DNA of 50,241 bases from Paracoccaceae bacterium. GTDB taxonomy: Bacteria; Pseudomonadota; Alphaproteobacteria; Rhodobacterales; Rhodobacteraceae. The first letter of the stretch is position 1, and every line of letters begins with the position of its first letter. The notes under the pieces were generated by a model, which saw nothing but the letters and a program-made list of their open reading frames with translations, was not told where the DNA came from and did not search any database. Where the stretch lies: the NCBI GenBank assembly GCA_026710155.1, contig JAPORQ010000054.1, forward strand, positions 1 through 50,241. The letters are read 5' to 3'. Both the position numbers and the translations under genes were made by a program. Below are positions 1,967 through 23,808 of the stretch, in pieces.

Positions 1967-1994
1967 CAACCCATTCCCCCTTCTGAATGAAGAA

Positions 1995-6183: not shown

Positions 6184-7821
6184 TCAGTCTGACAAAATCC
6201 AGCGTTTAGCCAGTTGCAGGGCCAGCAGACGTGAATAAAACCTTGCTTGGCTAAGATTGCCACCTGTCATCCATAAACCTTTTTGAGCGGTTTCTACCCA
6301 CATATTTCGCAATTCTCCGATCCAGGGACCAGGATCCCCCTTGGTGCCAGAACCATAGCCCCAGCAAGGACCCACACGCTTGGCCGTATCCTCATCAATC
6401 AATAAGGCAATCCAGTCGGTCATGTTCCCGTAACCTGTTGCATATATGATCGTTTCGGTTTCGATTTCCTCACCACTTGTCAAATGAACGGCATTCTTTG
6501 AAAGATGTCTTACACCATGTCCCGAGCGGATATCGATTCTGCCATCAATCACCATTTCAGTGCCACCTACATCAATGTAGTAACCGGAAGCTGTACGGCG
6601 GTATTTCATGCCGAGACCGGTTCCGTCCTCGGCAAAATCCAGGGTAAAACCGGTATCAGTTAACCGCTGATAAATACTCTTGCGGTCCCTGCGAATGCCA
6701 TCCCAAATGGCTCGATGTCTTGATTCCAAAAGGCGAAGGGGTACTGAGGCTTGCAGTATATCTGCCTTGTCAACAGTGATGCCTCCTGCCACAGCCTTGG
6801 CTGAATATAGTGATCCCAAAATCCTCTCACAATAATCCTGCCGGCCGACCACCAATGTTGAAGAGCGTTGAATCATGATTGGATGCGTTCCACTCAAGAC
6901 CAGATCAGAGGCTATATCATGAGCCGAGTTGTTGGCTCCAACAATGACAACGGGTTTGTCAGTATATCCCCTGAGATGCTTATAATCGCTGGAATGTAAC
7001 TGAGAACCAGCAAATATATCCTGTCCTTCAAACCTTGGAACTTTTTGAAAGCCTGAGATTCCAAGTGCCAACACCAAATGGGTGGGTTCCAACATTTCTG
7101 TCCTGCCATCCCTTCTGATTGCGGCATGCCAGCAACCCCGCAATTCATCATAACTAGCCCCGATCAGTACGGAACTGGTCCTGATGTTGAGTCCGAGTTC
7201 TTCAGCATAATCCTCCAACCAGTCAGCCATCATGTCTTTGGGAGTGAAGATTGGCCATCCCTTGGGAAATGGCTTGAAGGGCATGTGGTTGTACCAGACA
7301 GGATCATGTAACACCAGACTGTCATAACGCAATCGCCACTGATCTCCCACATGTGGATATCTGTCGATGATCTGGTATGGCACCCGGAGTTCTTGCAATT
7401 GGGCACCCAAAGCCAGCCCTGCCTGGCCTCCCCCTACAATTAGTACGAAAGGTGTGGTCTCTTGAGTCCCCCGATCGCTTTTGTGTGGCAAATCATTGAG
7501 CATGGTAAACAGTGTGGTGCACAGGCCATCTTGTAGATTTAGATACCCTCGTCCCAGCCCGTCCCTGGTTTGAAATCGAAAGAAACCTTCATTGTCTTCG
7601 GGCTTCCCTTCGAATTGTGCAGCCTCGAAGCCAGTTATTGCCCCATAATCAGAACCAAACTTTGCAATGTCTTTACGCCCCTCAATGGTTTGCAGACTCC
7701 AGCCAAAAGATAGATAATCCCGCCAGAATCCTCCTTCAATGAACAATTGGGAGATATCTGCCCCGTTTCCTGTGGCAACTATTTCTGCAAAACCAGCTAA
7801 CCAGTCAGCGGCATGTTTCAT
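6184..7821 (-). CDS. Flavin-containing monooxygenase-like oxidoreductase with NTF2-like N-terminus
   Basis: A 545-aa FAD/NAD(P)-dependent oxidoreductase of the group B monooxygenase/FMO type, oxygenating a soft nucleophile or carbonyl. Residues 1 to about 115 form a small SnoaL/NTF2-like segment (WRDYLSFGW, GLGRGYLNL). The FAD Rossmann motif VGGGQAGLALG follows near residue 130, an FMO fingerprint-like FAGSQLHSSDYK near 270-281, and the NADP motif VGANNSAHD near 294. The start is the ATG at 7821 (MKHAADW), because the frame farther upstream overlaps the preceding gene. It begins 4 bp after the enolase stop, so it is the last gene of a transketolase B-enolase-monooxygenase operon. The exact substrate is unknown. 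Confidence 0.85.
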   Translation of the reverse strand: MKHAADWLAGFAEIVATGNGADISQLFIEGGFWRDYLSFGWSLQTIEGRKDIAKFGSDYGAITGFEAAQFEGKPEDNEGFFRFQTRDGLGRGYLNLQDGLCTTLFTMLNDLPHKSDRGTQETTPFVLIVGGGQAGLALGAQLQELRVPYQIIDRYPHVGDQWRLRYDSLVLHDPVWYNHMPFKPFPKGWPIFTPKDMMADWLEDYAEELGLNIRTSSVLIGASYDELRGCWHAAIRRDGRTEMLEPTHLVLALGISGFQKVPRFEGQDIFAGSQLHSSDYKHLRGYTDKPVVIVGANNSAHDIASDLVLSGTHPIMIQRSSTLVVGRQDYCERILGSLYSAKAVAGGITVDKADILQASVPLRLLESRHRAIWDGIRRDRKSIYQRLTDTGFTLDFAEDGTGLGMKYRRTASGYYIDVGGTEMVIDGRIDIRSGHGVRHLSKNAVHLTSGEEIETETIIYATGYGNMTDWIALLIDEDTAKRVGPCWGYGSGTKGDPGPWIGELRNMWVETAQKGLWMTGGNLSQARFYSRLLALQLAKRWILSD

Positions 7822-7825
7822 GTTC

Positions 7826-8956
7826 TTAAATCTGATCTGCAAAGGTTGTGAGCATTCTGATAGTTGGTGGGTGCACCAGACCAGGGTCAGAAGGTAATTC
7901 GACTTGCCCCCCTTCAATGGCAATCACATCACCACAGAGCTCGGTACGTAAAGGGTTGTCGTTTACATCCACCTCGCAAGTGGAGCTCTTGCCCACGGCA
8001 GCACTTATTGACAAGGCAGCAACCTGACCCACGGCAGTTCCCATGAAATGCGGCCAGATTAATACATCCTCGGACACGGTTTGAGCCAGATCAAGTGCAC
8101 CAGAAACTCCACCCCATTTGGCTACATCCGGTTGGAGTACCTTAAGACCTGCTTGGGTCATGGTGAGGAAATCTTCAATTCCATAGATATTTTCCCCTGC
8201 TGCAAGTGGGATTATCGTAGCTTTTGCAAGCTCTTCCCAGTCCGAGAGAGGTGCATCGGCACGCAGTGCTTCCTCGGCAAAATAGGGCTCGTATTCCTCA
8301 ATATCCCTTAGTGCCACTTTTGCCTGTTCCAGCGTCCAGGATTGATTGCTGTCGACCATGATACTCGATCCATCAGGGGCCAATTTGGAGGCGTTTTCAA
8401 CAATATGTGCATTGCCATGCTCGACAAAACCAATCTTGAGCTTGAAATAGGTATGTCCCATTCCCGCATGGAGCGGAATCAGCCTTCCCAAGTCCTCGGC
8501 ATTGATGGAGGAGGCATAGGATTGTGCCCAGGAAGATGGAAGTCCCATGAAATCGGTAAAAGAAACACCCTTGTGGCGTAGTGTCAGATCCCAGAGTGCC
8601 ATATCAATCCCGGCCAGGATATGCTCGAACACTTGTGATTGGCCAATATGAAGAAAGAAAATGGCCAAGGAATTGCGCAATGCCTCTTGGACTTCGCGTG
8701 GGTCTGAGAAGCTAAAGCCCAGTAAATTGGTCTCAATTACATCCTCGACAATATTTGCCTTGTGGGTGTTGGCACGCGTTGGAAAATTTGCCCAGATTTC
8801 TCCCCAGCCATAACAACCTGAATTGTCTTCTATCTTGATCAGGAGGGCCGGACGGGTTGGCATGATTCCCAGTGCCATTTTGGGTGAGTTACCTCTCGAG
8901 GTACGGATTGGAAAGGTTTTGACCCCAGCAATTCTTATGGTGTCCTGGAAGTTCAT
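7826..8956 (-). CDS. Enolase-superfamily enzyme, mandelate racemase / muconate lactonizing family
   Basis: Enolase-superfamily enzymes abstract a proton alpha to a carboxylate, then dehydrate, racemise or cycloisomerise the substrate. With the ATG at 8956 as start (376 aa), the catalytic KxK is in YFKLKIG (about Lys172/Lys174). Metal ligands are Asp in MVDSNQSW (about 202), Glu in FAEEALR (about 228) and Glu in AAGENIYG (about 255). The base His is in IWPHFMG (about 303), which places it in the MR-like subgroup, where most members are sugar-acid dehydratases. An AGGTGAG run lies immediately before the chosen ATG; an upstream ATG at 8971 and a TTG at 9070 are alternatives. Sugar-acid dehydration would feed keto acids to neighbouring enzymes; that is inference. 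Confidence 0.85.
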   Translation of the reverse strand: MNFQDTIRIAGVKTFPIRTSRGNSPKMALGIMPTRPALLIKIEDNSGCYGWGEIWANFPTRANTHKANIVEDVIETNLLGFSFSDPREVQEALRNSLAIFFLHIGQSQVFEHILAGIDMALWDLTLRHKGVSFTDFMGLPSSWAQSYASSINAEDLGRLIPLHAGMGHTYFKLKIGFVEHGNAHIVENASKLAPDGSSIMVDSNQSWTLEQAKVALRDIEEYEPYFAEEALRADAPLSDWEELAKATIIPLAAGENIYGIEDFLTMTQAGLKVLQPDVAKWGGVSGALDLAQTVSEDVLIWPHFMGTAVGQVAALSISAAVGKSSTCEVDVNDNPLRTELCGDVIAIEGGQVELPSDPGLVHPPTIRMLTTFADQI

Positions 8957-9080
8957 CTCACCTGACAACATAGGCAAAATGTTTGGGGTTGAAATCAACA
9001 GCCCTTGATCCTGCTGAATAGAAACGAATGCCTGATTGCTCGAATGGACTAGCAAGAGTGAAGGAGTCAAAACCCACGAT

Positions 9081-10064
9081 CTATCCTTTCTTCTCCATGA
9101 CCTGATGCGCGGCCATTGCTATTGCCGATGCGTCCAGACCAAACTTTTTCATTAGATAGGAGGTGGTTCCACCCTCACAAAATTGATCTTTGATACCCAC
9201 TCGTTTGAAAGGTAAACCAATACCTTCCTCAACGATAATTTCTGCCACAGCAGATCCAAGCCCGCCAATGATGCTATGGTTCTCGGCAGTTACGATCGCG
9301 CCGGTTCTGGCAGCACTTTCAAGAATCAATGCCTGATCAATCGGCTTGATTGAGGCCATGTCAATAACCCGTGATTCGATACCCTCATTATCAAGATTAT
9401 CTGCTGCTGTAAGAGATTCAGCCAAACAAAGCCCTGCAGAAATGATTGTTACATCGGAACCTTCACGCCTGATAATGCCCTTGCCAATCTCCAGGCTTTG
9501 GGGGGTAAATTCATCTGGAGTTGTTTCGGGACGTTTCATGCGCAGATAGACGGGTCCGTCCCAATCAAGTGCAAGTTTGACCATGGTTGCGTGATATTCA
9601 GGTCCGGAAGGTTCGAAAATGGCCACGTTGGGAACAGAACGCATGATGGCAACATCTTCAATAGCCTGATGCGACACACCTAGTAAAGTAGCCACACCTG
9701 GCAGATAACCTACAATTTTAACCGGCAGGTTCGGATAGGCGGCCTGCATGGTGATCTGATCCAATACTCGTTTGGTAATGAAGGCACAAAAGGAATGGCA
9801 GAAAGGTATTTCACCACACCGTGCCATGCCACCAGCCAGACCGATCATGTTCGCTTCGGCAATGCCGACATTGTGAAACCGTTCGGGAAGTTCGTCTCGG
9901 AATAGGTCGGTTTCGGTTGGGGGAACCAAATCGGCACATAGGGCTACAATGCGAGAATCGGCCTTTGCTGCACTGACCAACGCTTCTCCATAGGCACGTG
10001 GCAATGGTTTGAACGAACGGTTGATGAAATCTGCCGCTTCCAATTGGGTCAAGGTCTCGTTCAT
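9081..10064 (-). CDS. Transketolase, C-terminal subunit, copy B
   Basis: A 327-aa pyrimidine-binding half of a second split transketolase. The catalytic Glu lies in HNVGIAEANMIGLAGG. RVIDMASIKPID and VTAENHSIIGGLGSAV mark the C-terminal domain. The ATG at 10064 overlaps the stop of the N-terminal subunit by the ATGA arrangement. By eye it is clearly more distant from copies A and C than those are from each other, and it resembles the common catabolic split transketolases. It lies upstream of the enolase gene, which starts about 124 bp downstream of its stop. Confidence 0.9.
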   Translation of the reverse strand: MNETLTQLEAADFINRSFKPLPRAYGEALVSAAKADSRIVALCADLVPPTETDLFRDELPERFHNVGIAEANMIGLAGGMARCGEIPFCHSFCAFITKRVLDQITMQAAYPNLPVKIVGYLPGVATLLGVSHQAIEDVAIMRSVPNVAIFEPSGPEYHATMVKLALDWDGPVYLRMKRPETTPDEFTPQSLEIGKGIIRREGSDVTIISAGLCLAESLTAADNLDNEGIESRVIDMASIKPIDQALILESAARTGAIVTAENHSIIGGLGSAVAEIIVEEGIGLPFKRVGIKDQFCEGGTTSYLMKKFGLDASAIAMAAHQVMEKKG

Positions 10065-10888
10065 AACTGCATTTCCAGTTCGGCTCGTGCACTGGCGGCC
10101 ACCTCGGGTGGAAACCGAAGTTGGTGAAACATCAACCCTTCAAGCGAGGCAACCCCCTTGCCCATCAGCGTGTTGGCCTTGATGAAACTGGGTTTGTTCT
10201 TGGTTGTGCGTGCCATATCATAGGCAGCGAGCAGTGACTCAATGTCGTTGCCATCCACTTCCTGACAGACAAAGCCGAAGCTTTCCATCTTGTCCATGAT
10301 TGGTTCAAGCGACATGACAAGATCCATTGGTCCTTCCGATTGGACAAAATTGTAATCAACTATTATACATAAATTGTCAAGGCCCTGCGTCCCGGCATAC
10401 ATCGCTGCTTCCCATACCTGACCTTCCTGCATTTCACCATCACCAAGAATTACGTAGAAGCGGCTTGCTCGACCTTGGCGCTTGGCGGCCAAAGCACAAC
10501 CGATGGCCACGGACAGACCCTGCCCAAGCGACCCGCAGGTGGCCTCCACAAATGATCCCATTCGCTCGGACGAATTTATCTCAAGTGGTGAACCGTCGGT
10601 GACATAGGTTGCCAAATCAGCTACATCAAAAAAACCTCGCTCGGCCAGGGTGGCATAGAAAATAGCGGTGTTATGGGCAGTCGTAAGAAAAATGCGGTCA
10701 CGATCGGGCCAGAATGGATTGGCAGGATCCATGGTTGCTTCGGCAAAATAGAGGGTTGTGAAAATATCCGCCGCCCCAAGCCCCTGTTGCACATAGCCTT
10801 GACCCGACGGTGCCACCATATCAACCACATGCAAACGCAATCGGGTAGCTATATTTGTCAATTCCTGCAGATTATGTTTCACATTCAT
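10061..10888 (-). CDS. Transketolase, N-terminal (TPP-binding) subunit, copy B
   Basis: A 275-aa TPP-binding half of split transketolase B. It keeps the canonical GDG in VILGDGEMQEGQVWEAAMYA followed by IVDYNFVQSEG. A conserved His is in LTTAHNTAIFYA, and GSLGQGLSVAIG is the subunit signature. It is the first gene of a minus-strand operon: tktN-tktC-enolase-monooxygenase. Its start is separated by only 63 bp from a divergent GntR regulator, which probably controls it. The order is N half first, opposite to the other two transketolase pairs in the window, in line with an independent origin. Confidence 0.92.
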   Translation of the reverse strand: MNVKHNLQELTNIATRLRLHVVDMVAPSGQGYVQQGLGAADIFTTLYFAEATMDPANPFWPDRDRIFLTTAHNTAIFYATLAERGFFDVADLATYVTDGSPLEINSSERMGSFVEATCGSLGQGLSVAIGCALAAKRQGRASRFYVILGDGEMQEGQVWEAAMYAGTQGLDNLCIIVDYNFVQSEGPMDLVMSLEPIMDKMESFGFVCQEVDGNDIESLLAAYDMARTTKNKPSFIKANTLMGKGVASLEGLMFHQLRFPPEVAASARAELEMQL

Positions 10889-10951
10889 GAGTAACTTGTG
10901 TTAAGATAAAGCACTATACCTTTATACCTTTGAAACAGAAGGATTGTCAAG
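10889..10951. promoter_or_regulatory. Divergent regulatory region between transketolase B and gntR
   Basis: This 63-bp AT-rich spacer must contain promoters for both directions. It holds a tandem TATACCTT/TATACCTT (about 10914-10929) and, overlapping the regulator start, TGTCAAGA (10945-10952). The reverse complement of that 8-mer, TCTTGACA, recurs at 11691-11698 before the transporter operon. The sharing makes it a candidate operator half, but it is short and also overlaps an ordinary -35 sequence. Confidence 0.35.
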
Positions 10952-11662
10952 ATGGATCTTCAATCAATGCGACGAACGGCTGTTCCCCTTCATGCCGAAG
11001 TTGCTGAAGTGCTGCGTCACCAGATCTTGTCGGGCAGTCTTGTGGTGGGAACCCGCCTGCCTACCTTGCGCAAGTTGGCTGAACAGTTGGGTGTGGCCCG
11101 AATGACGGTGGTACAGGCGATGAATACACTTGAAGAGGAGGGTTTGATCGAAAAACAATCCGGTCGGGGTACCTTTGTCAGGGATGTTGAACGGCCAAGC
11201 AAGCATACGCTTCACCTCAAAATGGAGCTTTCACAAATTTATGACATGGTTGATCAAATGAAGGTGTCTGTTCGCAAGCACTTTGCCACTATCGAAAAAA
11301 CCGAGGATGGCCGCTATTTCCGTTATTTGCGTCGTATCCATGCCAAATGGGGCAAACCTTTTTGTCAGGTGGATATCAGGTTGGATGACCGTATTTTCGA
11401 AAAAGCCCCCGAGCGATTCGAACGGGAAATCGTGATATCTGTTCTCAAGGATTTGGGTGTTTCAATTACCAGGGCCAGGCAGAATGTAACGATTTCCTAT
11501 GCTGATTTTGCCATGGCCGAGGCCCTTGGCATCAAGGTCAATTCAGCGGTATTTCGTGTAACAAGGGAATTCATGGACGCCGATGATCATCTGATTTATT
11601 GGGCAATACTCTATTATCCCAGCAATCTATTGGAGTTTGATATGGAGTTTGCCGTTGACTAA
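10952..11662 (+). CDS. GntR-family (HutC/UTRA subfamily) transcriptional regulator
   Basis: A 236-aa regulator with an N-terminal GntR winged helix (residues about 12-75: RLPTLRKLAEQLGVARMTVV and EKQSGRGTFV). A UTRA-like ligand-binding domain follows, containing QVDIRLDD, IVISVLKDLG and YWAILYYPS. UTRA domains bind small metabolites, often sugars, sugar phosphates or organic acids. It sits between the divergent transketolase B operon and the co-directional transporter-sulfatase operon, so it is the natural candidate regulator for both. The start is the ATG at 10952, preceded by AGAAGGA. Confidence 0.92.
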   Translation: MDLQSMRRTAVPLHAEVAEVLRHQILSGSLVVGTRLPTLRKLAEQLGVARMTVVQAMNTLEEEGLIEKQSGRGTFVRDVERPSKHTLHLKMELSQIYDMVDQMKVSVRKHFATIEKTEDGRYFRYLRRIHAKWGKPFCQVDIRLDDRIFEKAPERFEREIVISVLKDLGVSITRARQNVTISYADFAMAEALGIKVNSAVFRVTREFMDADDHLIYWAILYYPSNLLEFDMEFAVD

Positions 11663-11688: not shown

Positions 11689-11721
11689 TGTCTTGACATT
11701 TAACATTTCAAATGCAAAGAT
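11689..11721 (+). promoter_or_regulatory. Candidate promoter/operator of the transporter-sulfatase operon
   Basis: A perfect TTGACA (11693-11698) lies within the short inverted repeat TGTC-TT-GACA (11689-11698), the form expected for a GntR-class site overlapping a -35 box. The downstream -10 is weak (AAGATA/GATACA region near 11717-11723). A direct repeat CATTAAGA flanks it at 11677-11684 and 11736-11743. The leader to the first gene is about 150 bp long. Confidence 0.3.
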
Positions 11722-11873
11722 ACATACATCTAGACCATTAAGACATTTTCGTTGGAACTTCTGGTGAGTTTATCTGGAAATACTGGCCTTCAAATTGGGT
11801 TGATGAAACTGTTTCGAATTTTTCTGATGGTGCATGATTAATTTAGGAGTGTTCAAAGTATGGAGGATAAACT

Positions 11874-12842
11874 ATGAACCTGATCAAATTTGCCGTTTCG
11901 AGTTTTGCGGTTTTGTGGTTGAGCATGGGTGCCGCTTTGGCTGAATGGCCAGATAAACCCATCACCTATGTTGTCAGTTTTGGAGCTGGCGGAAACGCCG
12001 ATATTGTGGCTCGAATGAATGCCGATGTTCTTTCACGAGAGCTGGGCGTTCCGGTCAACGTTGTCAACAAACCTGGTGGGGCACATATTCCGGCGACAAT
12101 GTCCGTGGTCGAGGCCCCTGCTGATGGTTACACCTTGTTCAACTGGTCACCTCCATCCTTCATGATTGTTCCATTGACACGCGAAACACCATATGAACCG
12201 CTTGAGGATTTCATTCCTCTTTTTGCTGGTATATCGGCCTCAAACGCACTTTATGTACGTGGTGACAGCCCCTACACCACATTCGAGGAGTTCCTTGAGG
12301 GTGCCAGGGAAAACAAATTGACCATCGGGGTCAACAATCTAGGTGCACCACCCAACCTGTCAGCGGTTCAGTTGGCGAATGAGTTTGGGCTGGAGTTCAA
12401 AACCCTGGCATTGAAAACCGTACCAGCGACCATGGCAGGATTGATTGGCGGTCAGGTTGATGTTGCCGTTGGCCAGGTTGCTTCAATCCATGCTTATCAG
12501 GACGGAGAGGTTCGACCCTTGATTATCCTTGATAATGCACGGCAACCTTATATGGCAAAAGACCTTCCTGGCGTGCGAACCGTTGGAGAAGCCTTCCCCG
12601 GAAAGGAAGCCGGTGTCTGGGTCCATGGCGGTCTGGCCGTGAAGGCGGGAACACCCCAGGAAATTGTGGATAAGTTGCTGGAAGCATCCAAGCCCATGGG
12701 TGAAGAGGAGTTTATCTCGCAGGTTCCCAAATCAGTCGGATACAACTGGGTGCATGGAGTGGATGAAACAACAGCCTTGATCCAGGCCGGAATTGACCTC
12801 TATTCACCAATCCTTGATGGGCTTGGCCTACTCCAAAAATAA
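11874..12842 (+). CDS. tctC: Tripartite tricarboxylate transporter substrate-binding protein (TctC family)
   Basis: A 322-aa periplasmic solute-binding protein (Bug/TctC family) that captures a carboxylate-type anion for the TctAB membrane complex. A signal peptide is seen at residues 1-23, with predicted cleavage after AALA before EWPDKPI. Family features include VSFGAGGNADIVAR, VNKPGGAH and EAPADGYTLF. A strong GGAGG ribosome-binding site (ATGGAGGATAAACT) precedes the ATG. It heads a co-directional run tctC-tctB-tctA-sulfatase-tktC-tktN-SDR-FGE. The specificity of Bug proteins cannot be read from sequence; known ligands are mostly carboxylates. Confidence 0.93.
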   Translation: MNLIKFAVSSFAVLWLSMGAALAEWPDKPITYVVSFGAGGNADIVARMNADVLSRELGVPVNVVNKPGGAHIPATMSVVEAPADGYTLFNWSPPSFMIVPLTRETPYEPLEDFIPLFAGISASNALYVRGDSPYTTFEEFLEGARENKLTIGVNNLGAPPNLSAVQLANEFGLEFKTLALKTVPATMAGLIGGQVDVAVGQVASIHAYQDGEVRPLIILDNARQPYMAKDLPGVRTVGEAFPGKEAGVWVHGGLAVKAGTPQEIVDKLLEASKPMGEEEFISQVPKSVGYNWVHGVDETTALIQAGIDLYSPILDGLGLLQK

Positions 12843-12913
12843 CAAGGGTTGTAAAATTGGACATTGCACTCAATGGGAGAAAGTGCGGTGTCCATAATTT
12901 GAGGAGGTAATTC

Positions 12914-13375
12914 ATGCTCAGCCAACGAATTGCCAACACTGTCTTTGCGCTTTTGGTCATTCTGATCAGCTTCTATTTTGCATGGATTGCCGAAGGGTTT
13001 GAAGCTTCCGGCCTGTTGGCGAGTTCCGGCTTGCCTTCAAAATTTTTTCCCCAATTGATACTGGGTACTATAATAGCCTGTGCCATCATCACCTGTTACC
13101 TATATGGAATCAAGGGGGAAGCGGGGGGTGATGCTGGAGAGACAGTCTTTGACAACGCAGGAGATGCGCGTCGAGGAATCTTAATGCTGATTGTCTCGGT
13201 CGTGTGCTATCTCTCGTGGCGCAGCTTTGGTTTTATTCCCATGGCAATCCTGCTTGGACCTTTGTCATTGCTGGCCATGGGGATTAAACAACCATATATA
13301 TATGCAACCGTTTGGGGGCTCACGGGTTGTGTCTATCTTATCTTTACCTATCTTCTCGGGATTCAACTGGTGTGA
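12914..13375 (+). CDS. tctB: Tripartite tricarboxylate transporter small membrane subunit (TctB family)
   Basis: A 153-aa small integral membrane subunit of the TTT importer. Four hydrophobic segments are visible: residues about 8-30 (VFALLVILISFYFAWI), about 48-66, about 88-108 (LMLIVSVVCYLSW) and about 125-150, the standard TctB topology. GAGGAGG precedes the ATG at 12914. It lies between the substrate-binding protein and the large permease gene, the canonical TTT order. Confidence 0.9.
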   Translation: MLSQRIANTVFALLVILISFYFAWIAEGFEASGLLASSGLPSKFFPQLILGTIIACAIITCYLYGIKGEAGGDAGETVFDNAGDARRGILMLIVSVVCYLSWRSFGFIPMAILLGPLSLLAMGIKQPYIYATVWGLTGCVYLIFTYLLGIQLV

Positions 13376-13381
13376 TCCAAG

Positions 13382-14878
13382 GTGTTTGATCTGAATGCAC
13401 TCATGATTTCACTTGGCCTACTGGCCGACCCACTAACCATCACATTGTTGGTGGTGGGGATTGTTCTTGGAATGATCATCGGGATTTTGCCGGGCTTGGG
13501 GCCGCCGATTGCCATCGCATTGGCCCTGCCCTTCACCTTCTATATGGAAACGATCCCCTCGATGATTCTTTTACTCGGAATTTATTCAGCCGCCATTTAC
13601 GGTGGTTCAATCTCTGCGATCGCCGTTGGTATTCCCGGAACCGGTGCGGCCATTGCGACCGTACAGGACGGACACAAGATGTTCAAGGCAGGAAGGGGAG
13701 GCGAGGCACTTGGATTTTCGTTGACCGGCTCTATCATCGGCGGGCTGTTCAGTGTCGTCTGCCTGGTTGTGATCTCTCCCCTATTGGCAAGTCTTGCCGT
13801 CAAGTTCGGTCCTCGGGAATATTTGGCCATCAGCGTATTCGGCCTGATTGTTGTTGTCCGTGTTGCAGGCAAAAGCCTTCCCAAGGGACTGTTAATGGGA
13901 ACATTGGGGATTTTCCTGACCACCTGGGGTCTTGATGAGTTGAATGGAACCGAAAGGTTCACCTTTGGAACCTATCATCTATATGAAGGTCTGCCTCTCG
14001 TGCCATTTCTGGTGGGCCTGTTTGCTGTATCAGAGGTTTTGATCGGATCAGAGCGGGCCTTGCAGAAAACTAGATTCAATATGGACAGTTTGAAGGTAAA
14101 ACTACCCGGTTTGAAAACCCTGGCAGGACTTAAGGATGTGATCTTTCGATCCTCAATTATCGGGACAATCATTGGCATTATTCCGGGTGAAGGTGCTGCA
14201 GTTGGTGCTTTTTTTGCCTATTCGGAAGCCAAGCGCCGTTCAAAGACACCCGAAGCTTATGGCACCGGAATCCCGGAAGGGATTATAGCACCCGAGACTG
14301 CCAATAATGCAACCGTTGGTGGAGCCTTGGTACCAACTTTAACTTTAGGTGTACCGGGGAGTCCAGCGGCAGCAGTATTGCTTGGTGCCTTGTTGATTCA
14401 GGGTCTTACCCCCGGGCCCAAGCTCTTTAGCGACCGGCCTGACCTGATGTATGCGATATTCATCGGTTTGTTCGTGATCAACATTCTCATGATGTTCATT
14501 GGCTTATTGGCGATTCGCTTTGCAGCACGACTCATCATGGTTCCGACATCAGTTATTGTGCCAACGGTCCTGCTGTTGAGTTTTGTTGGAATTTACTCGG
14601 TCTCGTATTCATTCTTCAATGTAGGCGTATTAATGGGTGCCGGTATCCTGGGTTATGTGGTTCGTAAACTCGGCTATTCAATTGCCCCATTATCCATCGG
14701 TTTTGTCTTGGGGCCAATTTTAGAGAACTCCTTGCGCCAATCGCTTACCATCGCAGATGGATCATTTGTGGAATTCTTTAATTCACCTATTGGCCTGACC
14801 ATCTATGCAACATTGGTGTTGACTATCTTGTGGGGACCAATTATTTCGCGTATCAGGAAAAATTCGACCAAAGCATGA
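13382..14878 (+). CDS. tctA: Tripartite tricarboxylate transporter large permease (TctA family)
   Basis: A 498-aa permease with about twelve membrane segments, forming the transport channel of the TTT system. It carries the two conserved TctA glycine/proline motifs, GILPGLGPPIAIALALPFTF-like at residues about 34-53 and IIPGEGAAVGAFFAY near residue 265, plus APETANNA and TLGVPGSPAAAVLLGAL. The start is a GTG at 13382, 7 bp after the tctB stop. Its TGA overlaps the sulfatase ATG (ATGA), so importer and sulfatase are translationally coupled, implying that the imported molecule is the sulfatase substrate. Confidence 0.93.
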   Translation: MFDLNALMISLGLLADPLTITLLVVGIVLGMIIGILPGLGPPIAIALALPFTFYMETIPSMILLLGIYSAAIYGGSISAIAVGIPGTGAAIATVQDGHKMFKAGRGGEALGFSLTGSIIGGLFSVVCLVVISPLLASLAVKFGPREYLAISVFGLIVVVRVAGKSLPKGLLMGTLGIFLTTWGLDELNGTERFTFGTYHLYEGLPLVPFLVGLFAVSEVLIGSERALQKTRFNMDSLKVKLPGLKTLAGLKDVIFRSSIIGTIIGIIPGEGAAVGAFFAYSEAKRRSKTPEAYGTGIPEGIIAPETANNATVGGALVPTLTLGVPGSPAAAVLLGALLIQGLTPGPKLFSDRPDLMYAIFIGLFVINILMMFIGLLAIRFAARLIMVPTSVIVPTVLLLSFVGIYSVSYSFFNVGVLMGAGILGYVVRKLGYSIAPLSIGFVLGPILENSLRQSLTIADGSFVEFFNSPIGLTIYATLVLTILWGPIISRIRKNSTKA

Positions 14879-16368
14879 CCAGGCAACCGAACATTTTAAT
14901 CATCTATGCCGACCAGATGCGTTATGATGCCATGGGTTGTGCTGGCAATCCGGTAATCAAGACTGCCAATATCGACCGGCTTTCGGAGGAAGGTGTCCAT
15001 TTCAGCGAAGCCTATACGAGTTATCCACTTTGTTGTCCGTTCCGTGCTTCGGTACTGACTGGCAAGTATGCCCAAGGGCACGGCATGATACAAAATCATT
15101 TCCCCTTGCAGGGTGGGCAAGGTTTTCTGGCCGAGTATTTTCGTGATGCCGGCTATCGTACAGGATACATTGGCAAATGGCACCTGGAGGGCGGCCCCAA
15201 ACCGGGTTTAGTTCCACCCGAGCGGCGTTTTGGCTTTGATCATTTTATTGGATTCAACCGAGGTCACAGCTATAGATCCTCAATTTATTATGATGATGAA
15301 GGTCAGGCTTATCATTCGGCACGCTATGAGCCGGATTATCAAACGGATCAACTGATGGAATTCATAGACACTGCAGTCAAGGCCAAGGATAGCAAGCCAT
15401 TCCTGGGATACGTCAGCTATGGACCACCACATTTTCCAATGGACATGCCAGATCATCTGCGCCGGATTTACAAACCCGATGAGGTGCCTCTCCCACCGGG
15501 TGTACCGGATTCCGATTTACAGGCAAGGGTACAGAAGCATCGAAGCGAGGTGCTTTGTGGTGGTGACGCCAGGGCAGGCCACAAGAGCCATGCCTCTCAT
15601 GAAGCCAAAAGGGTCGGAGAAGTTGAAACCGAGGCGGAAATCCGTGAATTCATGGCCGAGTATTACGGCATGATTCATAATATCGATTGGAATGTTGGGC
15701 GTATTCTCAACCAGCTTGACAGTCTTGAGATTGCTGGGGACACGGTGGTTGTCTTTATGTCCGACCATGGGGATATGTGTGGACAACACGGGTCATTTTG
15801 TGGCATCAAGAATCAGGCATACCGTGCCGCGATGCATGTGCCCCTGATCGTTCGTTACCCGGCACGTTTCAAACCAAAACATACTGAAGCAATGGTTGAT
15901 GTAGGGGTGGATATGATGGCCACTCTTCTTGAACTCGCGGGAATTGGAATGCCGGATGGGCGAGATAGCCAATCCTATCTGCCTGTACTCGACGGTACAA
16001 GTGAAACGGCACGAGAATCTATATGGTACCAGGTCTTTACCCAAACCGGTGGGAATCCTCGTGAGTTTGCTCCCTTTGCTGAGCGTGGAATCCGTACCAG
16101 GGATTGGCTTTACATGCGCCGCAAGGACCACCGGGCAATGCTTTTTGATCAGCGAAATGATCGGGACGAACAGCATAATCTGGTCGGTGACCCTGCCCAT
16201 GGAAAACTGATGGATGAATTCGATGCAGAATTGGATTCACATATGAAAATGACAGGGGATGATTGGGACATGGCCGCCGACTTCCCGCCACCGGATTGGG
16301 TTACACATCAAGAGGCCGAGGTGTATCTTCAAAAGGTGCTCTTGCCTAATGCCATCAATGTACCATGA
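14875..16368 (+). CDS. Cys-type sulfatase (alkaline phosphatase superfamily), cytoplasmic
   Basis: A 497-aa sulfatase-family hydrolase of sulfate (or related phosphonate/phosphate) esters. The active-site signature is seen as LCCPFRASVLTGKY near residues 52-65: Cys53-x-Pro-x-Arg57, where Cys53 would be converted to formylglycine. Metal-binding motifs are IIYADQMRYD at the N-terminus and FMSDHGDMCGQHG near residue 290. The start at the ATG at 14875 (MTRQPNILII) overlaps the tctA stop. There is no signal peptide, so the enzyme should act in the cytosol after uptake. The required maturation enzyme (FGE) is encoded at 19015, in the same run. Phe replaces the more usual Ser in CxPSR. A phosphonate monoester hydrolase-type activity cannot be excluded. 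Confidence 0.9.
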   Translation: MTRQPNILIIYADQMRYDAMGCAGNPVIKTANIDRLSEEGVHFSEAYTSYPLCCPFRASVLTGKYAQGHGMIQNHFPLQGGQGFLAEYFRDAGYRTGYIGKWHLEGGPKPGLVPPERRFGFDHFIGFNRGHSYRSSIYYDDEGQAYHSARYEPDYQTDQLMEFIDTAVKAKDSKPFLGYVSYGPPHFPMDMPDHLRRIYKPDEVPLPPGVPDSDLQARVQKHRSEVLCGGDARAGHKSHASHEAKRVGEVETEAEIREFMAEYYGMIHNIDWNVGRILNQLDSLEIAGDTVVVFMSDHGDMCGQHGSFCGIKNQAYRAAMHVPLIVRYPARFKPKHTEAMVDVGVDMMATLLELAGIGMPDGRDSQSYLPVLDGTSETARESIWYQVFTQTGGNPREFAPFAERGIRTRDWLYMRRKDHRAMLFDQRNDRDEQHNLVGDPAHGKLMDEFDAELDSHMKMTGDDWDMAADFPPPDWVTHQEAEVYLQKVLLPNAINVP

Positions 16369-16375
16369 GTAAATT

Positions 16376-17347
16376 ATGCTGCTGAAAGGTGCCCATGGTT
16401 TTGACCCTGCACCATTTGACAAGATTAGCTATGATCTTTGCCAACGTCGCAAGGATGTGGTGATCCTGAGTGCCGATCTCAGTAAATATTGTCAGGTGAT
16501 TCGTGTCAAGAACGAATTGCCGGAACAGCATCTTGATGTGGGTATGGCCGAACAAAACCTACTCGCCGTGGCTGCCGGTGTTGCTCGTTCAGGGCTGATT
16601 CCAGTAGCCACCTGTTTTGCCTGTTATATCACCAGACGTGCTTATGATCAGATGATGATCTGCATGGGTACTGGATCTGGCCCTGGAACAAATCGTGAAA
16701 TTGGACCAACCAATATCGCCATTGGCTTTACCCCTGGTATCGCCAACCCGGCACGTATCCACCATCAAGCTGCCGAGGATCTTGGCATGGTACGGGCTAT
16801 TCCCAATGCAACCGCAATTGATCCCATGGACTCTACGGATTTTCGTGCAGCCCTTGATGCCGCCGTCGATCAACCCGGCCTAACCTACATTCGTGGACAT
16901 CGCGGTGATACGCCACGTTTGCTTGACAGCAGGGAATTTTCCTTTGAGATTGGCAAAACCTACCCGTTGAGGAAAGGTCAAGGAATCGGGATCATTGCGA
17001 CAGGTCTCGGTACCCAATGGGCACTTGAGGCTTCGGAACTATTGAGTGAACAGGAGGTTGAACATTCCCTCCTTCATGTACCGACCATCAAGCCAGTCAA
17101 TCAGGATGAGATCGTTGATTTTGCTTTTGCCCACAATCAGGTTGTAACAGTGGAAAATCATCAAATCGTTACGGGACTCGGATCATTGGTGGCCGAGATA
17201 ATTTCTGATGTTGGCAGCGGACCGCGTGTCAAGCGCTTTGGCTTGCCCAATCGATGGGCACCTGGTGGAACCATGCCGTATATTCGAGCACAACTTGGTC
17301 TTGATGCCAAAACGCTCGCCAACGATATTGCGGAGTGTATACGGTGA
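16376..17347 (+). CDS. Transketolase, C-terminal subunit, copy C
   Basis: A 323-aa pyrimidine-binding half of a third split transketolase. The catalytic Glu is in LDVGMAEQNLLAVAAG; HVPTIKPVN and VTVENHQIVTGLGSLVAEI are shared almost unchanged with copy A. Compared with copy A it has an insertion of about a dozen residues after ICMGTG (GPGTNREIGPTN). It starts 7 bp after the sulfatase stop, and its own stop overlaps the next subunit. The close kinship to copy A suggests duplication of a pathway enzyme and divergence to a related substrate. Confidence 0.92.
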   Translation: MLLKGAHGFDPAPFDKISYDLCQRRKDVVILSADLSKYCQVIRVKNELPEQHLDVGMAEQNLLAVAAGVARSGLIPVATCFACYITRRAYDQMMICMGTGSGPGTNREIGPTNIAIGFTPGIANPARIHHQAAEDLGMVRAIPNATAIDPMDSTDFRAALDAAVDQPGLTYIRGHRGDTPRLLDSREFSFEIGKTYPLRKGQGIGIIATGLGTQWALEASELLSEQEVEHSLLHVPTIKPVNQDEIVDFAFAHNQVVTVENHQIVTGLGSLVAEIISDVGSGPRVKRFGLPNRWAPGGTMPYIRAQLGLDAKTLANDIAECIR

Positions 17348-18189
17348 GAAAGGGCCGCAGGATAATTGATTTGGAAATCATGGCTGCCAGAATCCGGCGC
17401 CATGTACTCGAAATTTGTCGTCAACGAGGAGGGTATGCCGCACAAGGGGTTGCTCTGGCCGACATTGCGGCTTGTCTTTATTTTGATGAACTGCGTCCGG
17501 ATAATGAGGGTTGGTATCTTGACCGGTTTGTTCTGTCGAATGGGCATGATGCGATAATGACTTACGCCGCCTTGGCCGAATCCGGTCACTATACAGTGGA
17601 AGAGTTGCGAACCTACAATGCTGATGGAACCAAGGTGGATCAAAGCCCCATAGAAGGCCAGTTGGGATTTGAGATTACGGCAGGTTCGCTGGGGCAGGGA
17701 CCAAGCCAGGCCGCAGGGCTGGCCTGGGGTTTGCGCCAACAAGGTATGGACCAGCGGGTCTATTGTCTCTTTTCCGATGGTGAGTTGCAGGAGGGCAATG
17801 TCTGGGAAGGAGCCATGTTCGCAGCTCATCAAAAGCTTGACAACCTTTGTTTTATTGTCGACAACAACGATATGCAGGCTTCTGGACATGCCGCAGATGT
17901 CATGGGGGTTGAGCCGGTGGATGAAAAATTTACTGCCTTCGGTTTTCGGACCCGCCGAATCAGCGGAACGGATATGGCTGAACTCCTTGACACCTTTGAA
18001 GAGGCACGCAATACAAAAGGCAAACCCTTTGTCATGATATGTGACACACGTCTATGGGATGGTATTGATTGCCTACAAAAGGCTTTACCCATGGCCCATT
18101 ATACAGCCCAAAGTGCCGTCGATTGGGATAAGGGGATAAAGGAAATCGAAATGACATTGACCAGATTGGAGGCAAAACGGGATGAATGA
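17344..18189 (+). CDS. Transketolase, N-terminal (TPP-binding) subunit, copy C
   Basis: A 281-aa TPP-binding half pairing with the 16376 product. The TPP motif is LFSDGELQEGNVWEGAMFAA followed by IVDNNDMQASG; as in copy A, SDG replaces GDG. Other signatures are LSNGHDAIMTYAAL and TAGSLGQGPSQAAG. The start is taken as the GTG at 17344, which overlaps the previous stop (GTGA) and has GGAG 8 bp upstream; the GTG at 17335 is an alternative. The stop overlaps the following SDR start by 8 bp, indicating tight coupling. Confidence 0.9.
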   Translation: MRKGRRIIDLEIMAARIRRHVLEICRQRGGYAAQGVALADIAACLYFDELRPDNEGWYLDRFVLSNGHDAIMTYAALAESGHYTVEELRTYNADGTKVDQSPIEGQLGFEITAGSLGQGPSQAAGLAWGLRQQGMDQRVYCLFSDGELQEGNVWEGAMFAAHQKLDNLCFIVDNNDMQASGHAADVMGVEPVDEKFTAFGFRTRRISGTDMAELLDTFEEARNTKGKPFVMICDTRLWDGIDCLQKALPMAHYTAQSAVDWDKGIKEIEMTLTRLEAKRDE

Positions 18190-18961
18190 TTTGCCTTTGG
18201 GTGGCAAGATTGCCGTGATTACCGGAGCAGGACGAGGTATCGGCAAAGCGATTGCGTTGCGTTTTGCCAAGGAAGGTGCGGATGTTGCACTCTGTGCCCG
18301 GTCGCGGAAAGAATTGAGCGAGGTGAATTCGATTGTTGGCCGGCTTGGTCGCACCTGTTTGACCCTATCTGTTGATTTGGCCGACCCTACCCAAGTCAGG
18401 AGCTTTTGTGACCAGATCATTGACAAATTCGGTGCAGTGGACTTGATTGTCAACAATGCCGGCGTCTATCTCGAACGTGGCACCTTCGAAAATTCTGACC
18501 CTGAACTCTGGTGGAAAACCATGGAAGTGAACATACGAGGACCCTATCTCATCACTTATCATTTGCTTGCGGTAATGCGCCGGGGTGGGAAAATTATCAA
18601 CCTCTCCTCTGGCAAGGGCTATAGTGCCGGGGCCAACAGCAATGCCTATCATGTCTCGAAGGCTGCGTTGAATATGATGACCGAGGGTTTGGCCAATGAG
18701 CTATGGTTGAGAGACATCGATGTAAACACGCTGGTACCGGGGCCAACTGCCACGGCGACTTTTGACAATCTACCCCCAGGTCAGGAACGCCCACCAGAGG
18801 AAATACTTGCCCAGGATCGCAGTTCCCTGCCCAAGGGTCTGCCTGCATGGGAACGTGTTAAACATCCCGATGAAGTGGCCGATTTTGCATTCTATCTTGC
18901 TACACGACCCGTTGGTGGACCTACTGGTCAGATTTATTCTTTGGCCCGCCGTCCTCTGTAG
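18182..18961 (+). CDS. Short-chain dehydrogenase/reductase (SDR), third
   Basis: A 259-aa SDR, translationally coupled to transketolase C by an 8-bp overlap. The dinucleotide motif is TGAGRGIGKAIA, with NNAG near residue 89, a catalytic Ser in NLSSGKG, and Tyr-Lys in YHVSKAAL. In this operon it most plausibly oxidises a hydroxyl of the desulfated substrate to the ketone needed by transketolase, or reduces the product aldehyde. Those two directions cannot be separated from sequence. Confidence 0.88.
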   Translation: MNDLPLGGKIAVITGAGRGIGKAIALRFAKEGADVALCARSRKELSEVNSIVGRLGRTCLTLSVDLADPTQVRSFCDQIIDKFGAVDLIVNNAGVYLERGTFENSDPELWWKTMEVNIRGPYLITYHLLAVMRRGGKIINLSSGKGYSAGANSNAYHVSKAALNMMTEGLANELWLRDIDVNTLVPGPTATATFDNLPPGQERPPEEILAQDRSSLPKGLPAWERVKHPDEVADFAFYLATRPVGGPTGQIYSLARRPL

Positions 18962-19014
18962 ACATTTAAGGGGTAAGTCTGGTACTTTTCCGGATATGAT
19001 AACGAGACTCCGAA

Positions 19015-19974
19015 ATGACAGACCAATCTTCTGAAAAAGCAAGTTTCAAAACATGTTGCAGTCCAGCACGTACGGAAAATATGCGTGTCGATACAGTCAA
19101 TCGTATGAAAAAGAAAAAAACATATTCGGATTTTGCCACTGTCAAAGTGCCAGGTGGCATTGCCTTTTTGGGTACGAATCAGCCTCAAATTCCGGATGAT
19201 GGCGAAAGCCCCTTTTGCAAAAAACGATTAAAACCGTTTCGAATTGGTCGAACTGTCGTGACAAATCAGGAATTCCAGGAATTTGTAGATGAAACGGGAT
19301 ATGTGACCGACGCCGAGCAATTCGGTTGGTCCTTTGTCTTTTGGTCTGAAGTTTCTAAACTGGTAACCGCTACCCAAGGCGTGCATGGTGCTGGATGGTG
19401 GCGACGAGTGGATGGTGCGACTTGGAAAAATATCAATGGTCCGGGAACCGAGGCTGAAGTCTGGCATCCTGATCATCCGGTTGTTCAAGTCTCGCACGCT
19501 GATGCCTCGGCCTATGCGAGTTGGGCGGGTGGAAGATTGCCAAGCGAGTTGGAATGGGAACATGCCGCAAGGGCTGGCCAGAGTGATGCACCTTTTCCAT
19601 GGGGTGATACCGAACCAAATGATACTGACAATTTTCCCTGTAATATCTGGCAAGGAGATTTTCCGTACTTCAATACGGGCATGGATGGTTGGAAGACAAC
19701 GGCACCGGCAAAATCCTATCAACCCAATGCTTTTGGACTTTACAACATGGTTGGCAATGTGTGGGAGTGGACAGGGGATACCTATCGAGTTAAATCACGC
19801 AAAAAACATGTTCGCCAACGGATGAGCCAAATGCGGGGATTCAAATTGCTCAAGGGAGGATCATTCATTTGTCATCGGAGCTATTGTTACCGATACCGGA
19901 TAGCGGCCCGAACAGGCAATTCACCCGAAAGCTCGACTACCCATCAGGGTGTTCGAATTGTGTGGGATATATGA
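19015..19974 (+). CDS. Formylglycine-generating enzyme (FGE/SUMF1 family)
   Basis: A 319-aa copper-type FGE, which oxidises the active-site Cys of sulfatases to formylglycine. The catalytic pair is visible as Cys286 and Cys291 in FICHRSYCYRYRIAAR, followed by NSPESSTTHQGVR. This closely matches the active site of human SUMF1 and of proven bacterial FGEs and separates it from FGE-fold proteins of other function. Other signatures are GRTVVTNQEFQEFV, GGRLPSELEWEHAAR and NMVGNVWEWTGD. The N-terminus has TCCSPAR, often seen in bacterial FGEs. It lies 53 bp after the SDR gene in the operon whose sulfatase carries the matching CxPxR site. Confidence 0.93.
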   Translation: MTDQSSEKASFKTCCSPARTENMRVDTVNRMKKKKTYSDFATVKVPGGIAFLGTNQPQIPDDGESPFCKKRLKPFRIGRTVVTNQEFQEFVDETGYVTDAEQFGWSFVFWSEVSKLVTATQGVHGAGWWRRVDGATWKNINGPGTEAEVWHPDHPVVQVSHADASAYASWAGGRLPSELEWEHAARAGQSDAPFPWGDTEPNDTDNFPCNIWQGDFPYFNTGMDGWKTTAPAKSYQPNAFGLYNMVGNVWEWTGDTYRVKSRKKHVRQRMSQMRGFKLLKGGSFICHRSYCYRYRIAARTGNSPESSTTHQGVRIVWDI

Positions 19975-23114: not shown

Positions 23115-23790
23115 TCATGAACAATAACTAACCTCATAACGGTTTAATCGAGGATTGCAACCCCCATCATTCTCTCCCGTAAGAACAAGGCATTGGCATT
23201 CGATTTCGTGCAACCAGGGTTTCATTTCCGTACCGGCATAAATCTTGAAAACATTCAGAAACACGCCGGAATTTGTGGCAATAACCTGATTCAAGCGCTT
23301 TTTGACCACCCCAGGATGAAATTGGATAAATTCGTCTGCAAACCACCGATCGGTAAGTGTTTCCAGAATTTGTGGAATCCCTCTTGACTCCATTGCCTGC
23401 ACAACCTTCCACACATTGGAGGAATCATCACTTGTTCTGAAAGCTGCGGTTGATAACAAACCCAATGAAATAACTCTTTCAGGATACTTCCTTGCATAGG
23501 CGGTCCGATCATGCCCCTAAGGAATGACCAACAAAATGAGCGCGATCGATATTAATCTCACAACGAATCTATTCCAGGTCATCAACAAGATCACCCAAAC
23601 TTAACTCTTTTCCGGGTAAAGATTCTAACCCGTGTCCTCTTAGATCATAAGAAATTACCGTGAAGTGGTTCCTGAGTGTGGGTACCAGATTGTTCCAGGC
23701 AATACGGGAAGCCCCTATTCCATGGATAAGAAACATGGCTGGACCCATTCCTTCAATGGTATAGGGTCAAGTTTCTACTTTGGGCAGCAC
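23115..23790 (-). pseudogene. Broken alpha/beta-hydrolase gene
   Basis: A decayed alpha/beta-hydrolase. From a GTG at 23790 (AGGAGG about 12 bp upstream) the frame reads MLPKVET, a TGA, then PYTIEGMGPAMFLIHGIGAS, SYDLRGHG and, after a TAG, RAHFVGHSLGA. It then hits TGA and shifts frame to YARKYPERVISLGLLSTAAF and onward through CLVLTGENDGGCNPRLNRYE before ending early. The oxyanion HG and nucleophile-elbow GHSLG motifs are clear. There are at least three stops, one frameshift and a missing C-terminus with the catalytic His. Together with the upstream luciferase-like remnant it was once an operon. Confidence 0.75.
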
Positions 23791-23808
23791 AACGATTTAA
23801 AACTCCTC

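What the first reader, a model, noticed from the sequence alone, without database searches (positions are those of the whole stretch)
11874..19974. Candidate organosulfate uptake-desulfation-cleavage operon
A TTT importer (tctCBA) is coupled by ATGA overlap to a sulfatase without signal peptide, then to split transketolase C and an SDR, and then to an FGE with the correct CxxxxC active site. The order implies import of an intact anionic sulfate ester, cytosolic desulfation, oxidation and two-carbon transfer. TTT systems linked to a cytoplasmic sulfatase plus transketolase are not a pathway I know.
Basis: partly seen in the sequence, partly recalled or inferred. Interest (0 to 1): 0.75.

Follow-up and report, generated by a model that had tools for sequence, protein, structure and literature searches.

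The report
Conserved marine organosulfate uptake and breakdown regulon
A set of genes shared by scattered marine, partly sponge-associated bacteria looks built to import an unknown small sulfated molecule, cut off its sulfate inside the cell and break its carbon chain with vitamin-B1 enzymes, a route we could not match to any described pathway.

Summary
Confirmed: tctCBA, an ATGA-coupled signal-less type I sulfatase, split transketolase-like C and N chains, an SDR and an FGE form one + strand run (11874-19974). It is conserved: among 35 relatives (>=66% sulfatase identity), tctA directly precedes the sulfatase in 31 of 32 testable loci, and a TPP enzyme lies within 5 kb downstream in 32 of 32 (25 transketolase-like, 7 acetolactate-synthase-like, none with both). 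FGE homologues occur in 32 of 34 carrier genomes. Best reading: GntR-controlled import, cytosolic desulfation, oxidation and TPP-dependent C-C cleavage of a small non-phosphorylated sulfate ester, perhaps a polyhydroxy acid. Substrate and every activity are inferred. The paper searches listed nothing matching. New variant of a known kind (importer plus cytosolic sulfatase).

The parts
6184..7842 (-). FAD/NAD(P)H monooxygenase-like protein (FMO / Baeyer-Villiger-like), optional member
   Evidence: Pfam Pyr_redox_3, FMO-like; orthologues in 10 of 35 close loci
7826..9070 (-). MR/MLE enolase-superfamily enzyme, putative acid-sugar dehydratase (true start uncertain)
   Evidence: Pfam MR_MLE_C/N; NCBIfam galactonate dehydratase 86.9 bits, below its cut-off of 311; in 23 of 35 close loci
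9081..10064 (-). TK2 C chain (Transket_pyr + Transketolase_C)
   Evidence: this family in 24 of 35 close loci
10061..10888 (-). TK2 N chain (Transketolase_N)
   Evidence: residues
10910..10931 (-). second operator-like site, in the tkN2/GntR divergent intergenic region (weak score)
   Evidence: second best match in the 50-kb window to a matrix trained on tctC-upstream sites of other loci; alone not above shuffles
10952..11662 (+). GntR/UTRA (HutC/PhnF-like) regulator
   Evidence: Pfam GntR + UTRA; HutC and PhnF models below cut-off
11693..11698 (+). -35 hexamer TTGACA, 17 bp before the -10-like AAAGAT
   Evidence: sequence; TTGAC stands before the operator in 26 of 29 sources with a site (my count)
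11716..11737 (+). operator AAAGATACATACATCTAGACCA overlapping the -10 of the tct promoter
   Evidence: site found upstream of tctC in 29 of 31 sources (sites picked by likeness to a typed consensus); the only place with <=3 mismatches in the 3.13-Mb genome, where the reversed control pattern also gives one hit
11874..12842 (+). tctC, TTT solute-binding protein
   Evidence: Pfam TctC 3.3e-28
12914..13375 (+). tctB
   Evidence: Pfam TctB 5e-9
13382..14878 (+). tctA
   Evidence: Pfam TctA 1.6e-141
14875..16368 (+). cytosolic type I (Cys/fGly) sulfatase
   Evidence: Pfam Sulfatase 8.6e-57; D13,Q14,C53,R57,K101,H103,H186,D297,H298,K312 invariant in 30 of 30
16376..17347 (+). TK1 C chain
   Evidence: this family in 25 of 35 close loci
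17335..18189 (+). TK1 N chain (start perhaps GTG 17344)
18182..18961 (+). SDR oxidoreductase
   Evidence: Pfam adh_short 6.2e-49; 18 of 35 close loci
19015..19974 (+). FGE, formylglycine-generating enzyme
   Evidence: Pfam FGE-sulfatase 6.2e-67; the only PF03781 match in the genome

Best explanation
A substrate-induced catabolic regulon for a small organosulfate. Proposed steps: (1) TctC catches an anionic sulfate ester in the periplasm and TctAB imports it intact; (2) FGE converts Cys53 of the sulfatase to formylglycine, and the sulfatase releases sulfate in the cytosol; (3) the SDR oxidises a hydroxyl of the desulfated product to a ketone, giving an alpha-ketol or keto acid; (4) TK1 (or, in other genomes, an acetolactate-synthase-like TPP enzyme) cleaves or transfers the C-C unit next to that ketone without a sugar phosphate; TK2 acts on a second such intermediate; (5) aldehyde and hydroxy-acid products go through an ALDH (where present) and the MR/MLE enzyme, which would dehydrate a sugar-type acid to a 2-keto acid; (6) the GntR/UTRA protein represses both divergent operons and is released by a pathway metabolite. 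Shown: gene content, order, conservation, motif residues, operator recurrence, FGE co-occurrence. Inferred: every catalytic step, the repression and the substrate, most likely a small polyhydroxy acid carrying a sulfate ester.
For: Gene families. Conserved order in 35 close relatives: tctA next to the sulfatase 31 of 32, exact 4-bp overlap 28 of 32, downstream TPP enzyme 32 of 32 with TK1 25, ALS-like 7, both 0, neither 0. FGE homologues (1e-30 or better) in 32 of 34 carrier genomes. A tkN/GntR divergent pair in 23 of 35 close loci; in L030 and L032 MLE sits inside the sulfatase operon. A matrix trained only on tctC sites puts a site near the GntR start within the top 3 of each source in 26 of 29; in the rearranged locus L047 the site moved with GntR. 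The sulfatase set D13 Q14 C53 H103 D297 H298 K312 matches Asp14, Gln15, Cys54, His104, Asp296, His297, Lys309 that PMC5870055 (passages read) gives for choline sulfatase. TTT precedent: passages of the review PMC5812351 name sulfolactate and galactarate/glucarate TTT systems and say known ligands carry carboxylates or groups such as sulfate and amide.
Against: No substrate or activity is known for any member. ALDH is in 13 of 35 close loci, is absent from the window, and the own genome has only ~30% identical ALDHs. SDR and flavin monooxygenase vary between loci. FGE is in the locus in only 11 of 35 close loci, and 2 of 34 carrier genomes (those of L009 and L038) gave no FGE homologue at 1e-30, only a weak domain match. 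MR/MLE and SDR match curated functional models only below cut-off. The 10910 operator alone scores within the range of shuffles. The system is rare: only the window's own genome among 292 of its order and 385 of its class; 5 of 9 in its genus. The own genome has three other sulfatases with a C-x-P-x-R motif, so FGE may not serve this sulfatase alone.
Confidence: 0.6

Rival explanations
1. Sulfur scavenging: the module harvests sulfate from a range of esters, and the TPP enzymes only clean up the carbon leftovers.
For: Some bacterial sulfatases serve sulfur supply (recalled). The regulator is of a broad HutC/PhnF-like type.
Against: Sea water is rich in sulfate (general knowledge). Two TPP enzymes, SDR, MR/MLE and sometimes ALDH share the arrangement, and a TPP enzyme is present in 32 of 32 loci with downstream sequence, which points to carbon catabolism. 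The regulator is GntR/UTRA, not a Cys-type one.
Confidence: 0.13
2. The hydrolase is a phosphonate monoester or phosphodiester hydrolase of the same superfamily, so the imported compound is not a sulfate ester.
For: Its active-site pattern is shared by choline sulfatases, dimeric arylsulfatases and, in 9 of 11 residues, a phosphonate monoester hydrolase (PMC5870055 passages; residues). Phosphonate monoester hydrolases are among the PDB hits.
Against: Pfam Sulfatase and SGSH_C; NCBIfam PehA 177.9 bits against a cut-off of 900; the best PDB hits are named sulfatases. No phosphonate gene appeared among the conserved clusters that were identified.
Confidence: 0.12
3. Specific route: a sulfated aldonate such as gluconate sulfate is desulfated, oxidised by the SDR to the 5-keto acid, split by TK1 to tartaric semialdehyde plus a C2 unit, then ALDH and the MR/MLE enzyme take it to tartrate and oxaloacetate.
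For: It uses SDR, TK, ALDH and MR/MLE in order. A mutant transketolase makes tartaric semialdehyde (abstract start of PMC12016104 in a search listing). The SDR hits glucose 1-dehydrogenase and gluconate 5-dehydrogenase models, below cut-off.
Against: Many SDR models match (230 families). The D-tartrate dehydratase structures, as I recall their entry codes, are not among the MR/MLE hits to 1e-10. It does not explain TK2, the monooxygenases or the E1/lipoyl proteins of some loci.
Confidence: 0.1
4. A version of the sulfo-transketolase (sulfoquinovose) pathway.
For: Split transketolase-type enzyme, sulfur-carrying substrate.
Against: A sulfatase of this type cleaves sulfate esters, not C-SO3- (general knowledge). 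Sulfo-TK has R-A-F-D-R for the head group (PMC11659671 passages), while TK1 and TK2 here differ. No sugar isomerase was seen among the conserved clusters that were identified.
Confidence: 0.03

Closest known systems
Choline-O-sulfate utilisation (BetC choline sulfatase with a choline-sulfate importer)
   Same: Importer plus cytosolic formylglycine sulfatase (system recalled); same active-site pattern
   Different: TIGR03417 chol_sulfatase 174.5 bits against a cut-off of 433.45; TTT importer; TPP enzymes and MR/MLE; no choline-oxidation gene among the genes identified in the unit
Sulfo-TK pathway (SqwGH split transketolase)
   Same: Two-chain transketolase-superfamily enzyme in organosulfur catabolism
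   Different: Sulfonate, not sulfate ester; acts with GAP and has the head-group motif R-A-F-D-R, against TK1/TK2 sites without the His461/Asp469 equivalents
TTT (tctCBA) sugar-acid and sulfonate importers (sulfolactate, galactarate/glucarate, alginate oligosaccharides)
   Same: Complete TctC/TctB/TctA set; anionic ligands
   Different: None of the TTT systems in the passages and abstract seen is described as coupled to a sulfatase
Carboxydothermus hydrogenoformans split transketolase (PDB 6yaj)
   Same: Best PDB relative of both C chains: TK1 145 bits, TK2 261 bits
   Different: It has the TH...GEDG...HQ segment, whose His and Glu-Asp both window enzymes lack

Membership tests
Type I (formylglycine) sulfatase | C/S-x-P-x-R nucleophile motif | tested here: met
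   C53-x-P55-x-R57 in the window; C53 and R57 invariant in 30 of 30
Type I (formylglycine) sulfatase | Metal and catalytic residues D, D/Q, K, H, H, D, N/H, K | tested here: met
   D13 Q14 K101 H103 H186 D297 H298 K312 invariant in 30 of 30
Type I (formylglycine) sulfatase | Hydrolyses a sulfate ester | not testable with these tools
   no assay
Choline-O-sulfatase (BetC) | Scores above the curated BetC model | tested here: not met
   TIGR03417 174.5 < 433.45 bits
Formylglycine-generating enzyme | FGE domain with the CxxxxC pair | tested here: met
   PF03781 226.4 bits; CHRSYC read
TTT transporter | TctA, TctB and TctC together | tested here: met
   all three above gathering cut-offs
Transketolase superfamily (TPP, split) | GDG...N Mg/TPP motif and catalytic Glu | tested here: met
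   D155, N185, E411 equivalents in 12/12 TK1 and 11/11 TK2
Canonical sugar-phosphate transketolase | His26, His100, His461, Asp469 (E. coli numbering, recalled) | tested here: not met
   Y/S/-/- in 12 of 12 TK1, Y/(N or I)/-/- in 11 of 11 TK2
Canonical sugar-phosphate transketolase | Arg358 of the phosphate site | tested here: inconclusive
   an Arg falls in this column in 12 of 12 TK1, but searches align the stretch differently; 0 of 11 TK2 have Arg; Arg520 kept in all 23
MR/MLE acid-sugar dehydratase | Curated functional model reached | tested here: not met
   galactonate dehydratase 86.9 < 311 bits; superfamily membership met
Sulfo-TK pathway | R-A-F-D-R head-group motif | tested here: not met
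   TK1 and TK2 residues against the motif quoted
Sulfo-TK pathway | SQ and SE isomerases | tested here: inconclusive
   none among the conserved clusters identified; no dedicated search was run

The most novel reading that the evidence does not exclude
An undescribed marine carbon-and-sulfur catabolic pathway in which an intact sulfated polyhydroxy acid is taken up by a TTT importer, desulfated in the cytosol and dismantled by two phosphate-independent TPP enzymes of transketolase ancestry, one exchangeable for an acetolactate-synthase-like enzyme. TTT-coupled cytosolic sulfatases would be a general, unrecognised entry route for organosulfates.
Probability: 0.45. Interest if true: 0.72.

Novelty: new variant of a known kind. 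Interest (0 to 1): 0.52.

Why it matters
Sulfate esters are an abundant form of marine organic sulfur, yet few small-molecule sulfate-ester pathways are known beyond choline sulfate (general knowledge). This regulon offers a testable genetic handle: a binding protein, a sulfatase with its activator, a regulator with a predicted operator, and named carriers. It also points to phosphate-independent transketolase-like enzymes in catabolism.

Tried and rejected
Plasmid searches for named analogues: sulfatase, 3 haloarchaeal records at about 35%, of which the one opened lies beside a GH78-type gene; TK1 C chain, none at 1e-60; TK2 C chain, 39 records, all below 60%, of which the two opened, Rhizobium SSA_523 and Variovorax VAI-C, carry class III aminotransferases and DMFase-like or amidase genes and give no substrate clue; MR/MLE, 1 record at 35%, without annotation. 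A tricarballylate reading from the neighbouring tcuAB was rejected: of the loci, only L007 and L029 have tcuAB beside the cluster. Choline sulfatase and sulfo-TK readings failed their membership tests. The tartaric-semialdehyde route is kept only as a rival. An early ORF caller picked antisense frames in GC-rich loci; it was replaced by a codon-usage caller, but the FGE count per locus still rests.

Dropped before counts: of 48 loci, the 13 with under 66% identity (L034, L035, L037, L039, L040, L044, L045, L048-L053) are left out of the 35-locus counts. Within those 35, 3 lack upstream sequence (L020, L022, L046) and 3 lack 2.5 kb downstream (L021, L031, L043; L021 shows the start of an ALS-like gene). 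L043 and L046 come from one MAG. The one tctA miss is L036, a draft with frameshifts. In some searches, 34 of the 35 were given (L046 left out). One search covers 12 TK1 and 11 TK2 pairs from the window and 12 chosen loci. In one search, 29 of 31 sources have an acceptable tctC site; L021 (cut contig) and L028 do not and were dropped. In one search the three misses are L017 (cut contig), L036 (a rank-2 site lies just outside the searched stretch) and L042 (GntR elsewhere); the L032 hit is the tctC site itself, because there GntR is divergent from tctC.
Full report
Observation. The window carries, on the + strand, GntR (10952-11662), tctC, tctB, tctA, sulfatase, transketolase-like C chain, N chain, SDR and FGE up to 19974. 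The sulfatase most likely starts at ATG 14875, sharing ATGA with the tctA stop. C53 and R57 of its C-x-P-x-R motif and the metal and catalytic residues are invariant in 30 aligned sequences. FGE carries the CxxxxC pair and is the only PF03781 match in the 3.13-Mb genome. The own genome has four further sulfatase matches, three of them with a C-x-P-x-R motif.

Divergently, on the - strand, lie a second transketolase-like N and C pair (10061-10888, 9081-10064), an MR/MLE enzyme (7826-9070) and a flavin monooxygenase-like protein (6184-7842).

Conservation. A single genome-collection scan with the sulfatase gave 48 loci. Thirty-five have at least 66% identity; by record title they are mostly Rhodobacteraceae-type, with other alphaproteobacteria including a Geminicoccaceae MAG, and gammaproteobacteria (Granulosicoccaceae, Chromatiales and others). 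In these, tctA directly precedes the sulfatase in 31 of 32 loci with upstream sequence, with an exact 4-bp overlap in 28 of 32. A TPP enzyme lies within 5 kb downstream in 32 of 32: TK1 in 25 (in L017, L022 and L046 on the opposite strand) and an ALS-like enzyme in 7, with no locus showing both. Of the 35, TK2's C chain is in 24, MR/MLE in 23, the SDR in 18, an aldehyde dehydrogenase in 13, the FMO-like protein in 10 and a PtlE-like Baeyer-Villiger-type enzyme in 6 (families). Many loci are cut, so these are lower bounds. Eight loci have an E1alpha-type subunit, seven a transketolase-C-type partner, five an 80-aa biotin/lipoyl domain protein. FGE itself lies in the locus in 11 of 35. A PF03781 match exists in 34 of 34 carrier genomes, against 4 of 14 control genomes; a homologue of the window's FGE at 1e-30 or better is in 32 of 34, and the two misses are the genomes of L009 and L038.

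Distribution. The sulfatase is found only in the window's own genome among 292 sampled genomes of its order at 1e-100 and among 385 of its class at 1e-60, and in 5 of 9 of its genus. In the tree of 30 sulfatases, gammaproteobacterial sequences and a Geminicoccaceae one nest among Rhodobacteraceae sequences, with mixed support. This suggests horizontal transfer. Several record names look like sponge metagenome bins, and Ca. Rhodobacter lobularis is, from memory, a sponge symbiont; habitat was not tested.

Regulation. Upstream of tctC, 29 of 31 sources share AAAGRTACRTACATCTAGACCA-like sites overlapping the -10 region, preceded in 26 of these 29 by TTGAC about 17 bp before (the last count is mine from the printed rows). 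A matrix trained on tctC-upstream sites of other loci ranks the 11716 site first in the window; its second best match in 50 kb (10.9 bits, weak) is at 10910, inside the 63-bp tkN2/GntR intergenic region. Across 29 sources (28 loci and the window), a site near the GntR start is within the top 3 in 26; one of these (L032) is the tctC site itself. In L047, where GntR has moved, the site moved with it. In five mononucleotide shuffles of the window the best chance score was 8.4 to 17.3, so the 10910 site taken alone would not be significant; the recurrence at the same place across loci is the evidence. In the own genome the consensus with up to 3 mismatches occurs once, at tctC; the reversed control pattern also occurs once. 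I infer that GntR autoregulates and controls both operons.

Transketolase-like enzymes. Against the genome's own transketolase (L054), TK1 and TK2 are 22% and 24% identical over aligned positions and 35% to each other. They keep the equivalents of His66, Asp155, Asn185, His261, Asp381, Glu411, Phe434, His473 and Arg520, but lack His26, His100, Ser385, His461 and Asp469 in 12 of 12 TK1 and 11 of 11 TK2 (E. coli numbering recalled). PMC11659671 (passages read) gives R-S-F-H-R for sugar-phosphate transketolases and R-A-F-D-R for the sulfo-TK enzyme; neither fits. The ALS-like enzyme of the other loci has a glutamate in HEQAA and closest PDB relatives among acetolactate synthases and glyoxylate carboligases. 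That the two stand in for each other suggests that the step is C-C bond chemistry at a ketone without a sugar phosphate; this is inference.

Sulfatase type. The residue set equals that quoted for choline sulfatase in PMC5870055 (passages read), whose relatives include dimeric arylsulfatases and phosphonate monoester hydrolases. The curated choline sulfatase, arylsulfatase and PehA models are all missed by wide margins. Substrate is therefore open. The TTT review PMC5812351 (passages read) says nearly all characterised ligands have two carboxylates or other groups such as sulfate and amide; galactarate/glucarate and sulfolactate systems are named. The abstract of PMC13390454 (outline seen) reports a TTT for alginate oligosaccharides. 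With an MR/MLE enzyme in the unit, a sulfated polyhydroxy acid is my best guess.

Wider pairing. Of the 13 more distant loci, five (L034, L037, L039, L040, L045; 38-58% sulfatase identity) also have a sulfatase directly or within about 2.6 kb after tctA, L034 twice, with tctA only 37-42% identical in three of them. The other eight gave no TTT hit; several are short.

Literature. TTT + sulfatase + transketolase gave 0 papers. Related combinations gave 6, 13, 8, 16 and 1 papers; two broad searches showed only 15 of 373 and 10 of 344, one 8 of 101. No listed title or abstract start describes this pathway; apart from the four papers named above as passages or outline, none was opened, so a mention in a body text could be missed. 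The library lacks most subscription journals.

Verdict. The finding is real, conserved and larger than reported. The mechanism is plausible, the substrate is unknown, and the plain transketolase interpretation needs revision. On checking, the FGE co-occurrence was lowered from 34 of 34 to 32 of 34 homologues, and the confidence of the best explanation from 0.62 to 0.60.

Noticed in passing
window 21-2044 (-): A third split transketolase-like pair, 57% identical to TK1, beside a zinc-type alcohol dehydrogenase (1995-3011), an HxlR regulator and two SDRs: a second possible phosphate-independent TPP cluster in the same window.
   Followed up: partly
window 20031-22479 (-): tcuB/tcuA (tricarballylate utilisation type) convergent to FGE; TcuB over the TIGR02484 cut-off. 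Among the loci, beside the cluster only in L007 and L029, so probably not part of it.
   Followed up: partly
window 23139-24195 (-): Partial matches to two genes that are longer in L029/L007: one as two disjoint pieces, one with only its last 128 residues matched; they look like remnants.
   Followed up: no
window 24420-25160 (-): Ankyrin-repeat protein of 246 aa, a protein type I recall as common in sponge symbionts.
   Followed up: no
L034, L037, L039, L040, L045: Distant sulfatases (38-58%) also follow TTT genes, L034 with two TTT-sulfatase units: TTT-coupled sulfatases may be a broader theme.
   Followed up: partly
L019, L023-L026, L041, L042: ALS-like TPP enzyme and no TK1 after the sulfatase; six of these seven also have an E1alpha/E1beta-type pair, and five a lipoyl-domain protein, in the divergent operon.
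   Followed up: partly
L065 and L066 (Rhizobium SSA_523, Variovorax VAI-C plasmids): TK2-like pairs at 52-57% identity beside class III aminotransferases and DMFase-like or amidase genes: TK2-type enzymes occur in other, perhaps nitrogen-linked, pathways.
   Followed up: no
L041 18042-20222 (-): A TPR protein with a sulfotransferase domain about 6.5 kb downstream of the sulfatase, its family present in five loci (cluster 23).
   Followed up: no
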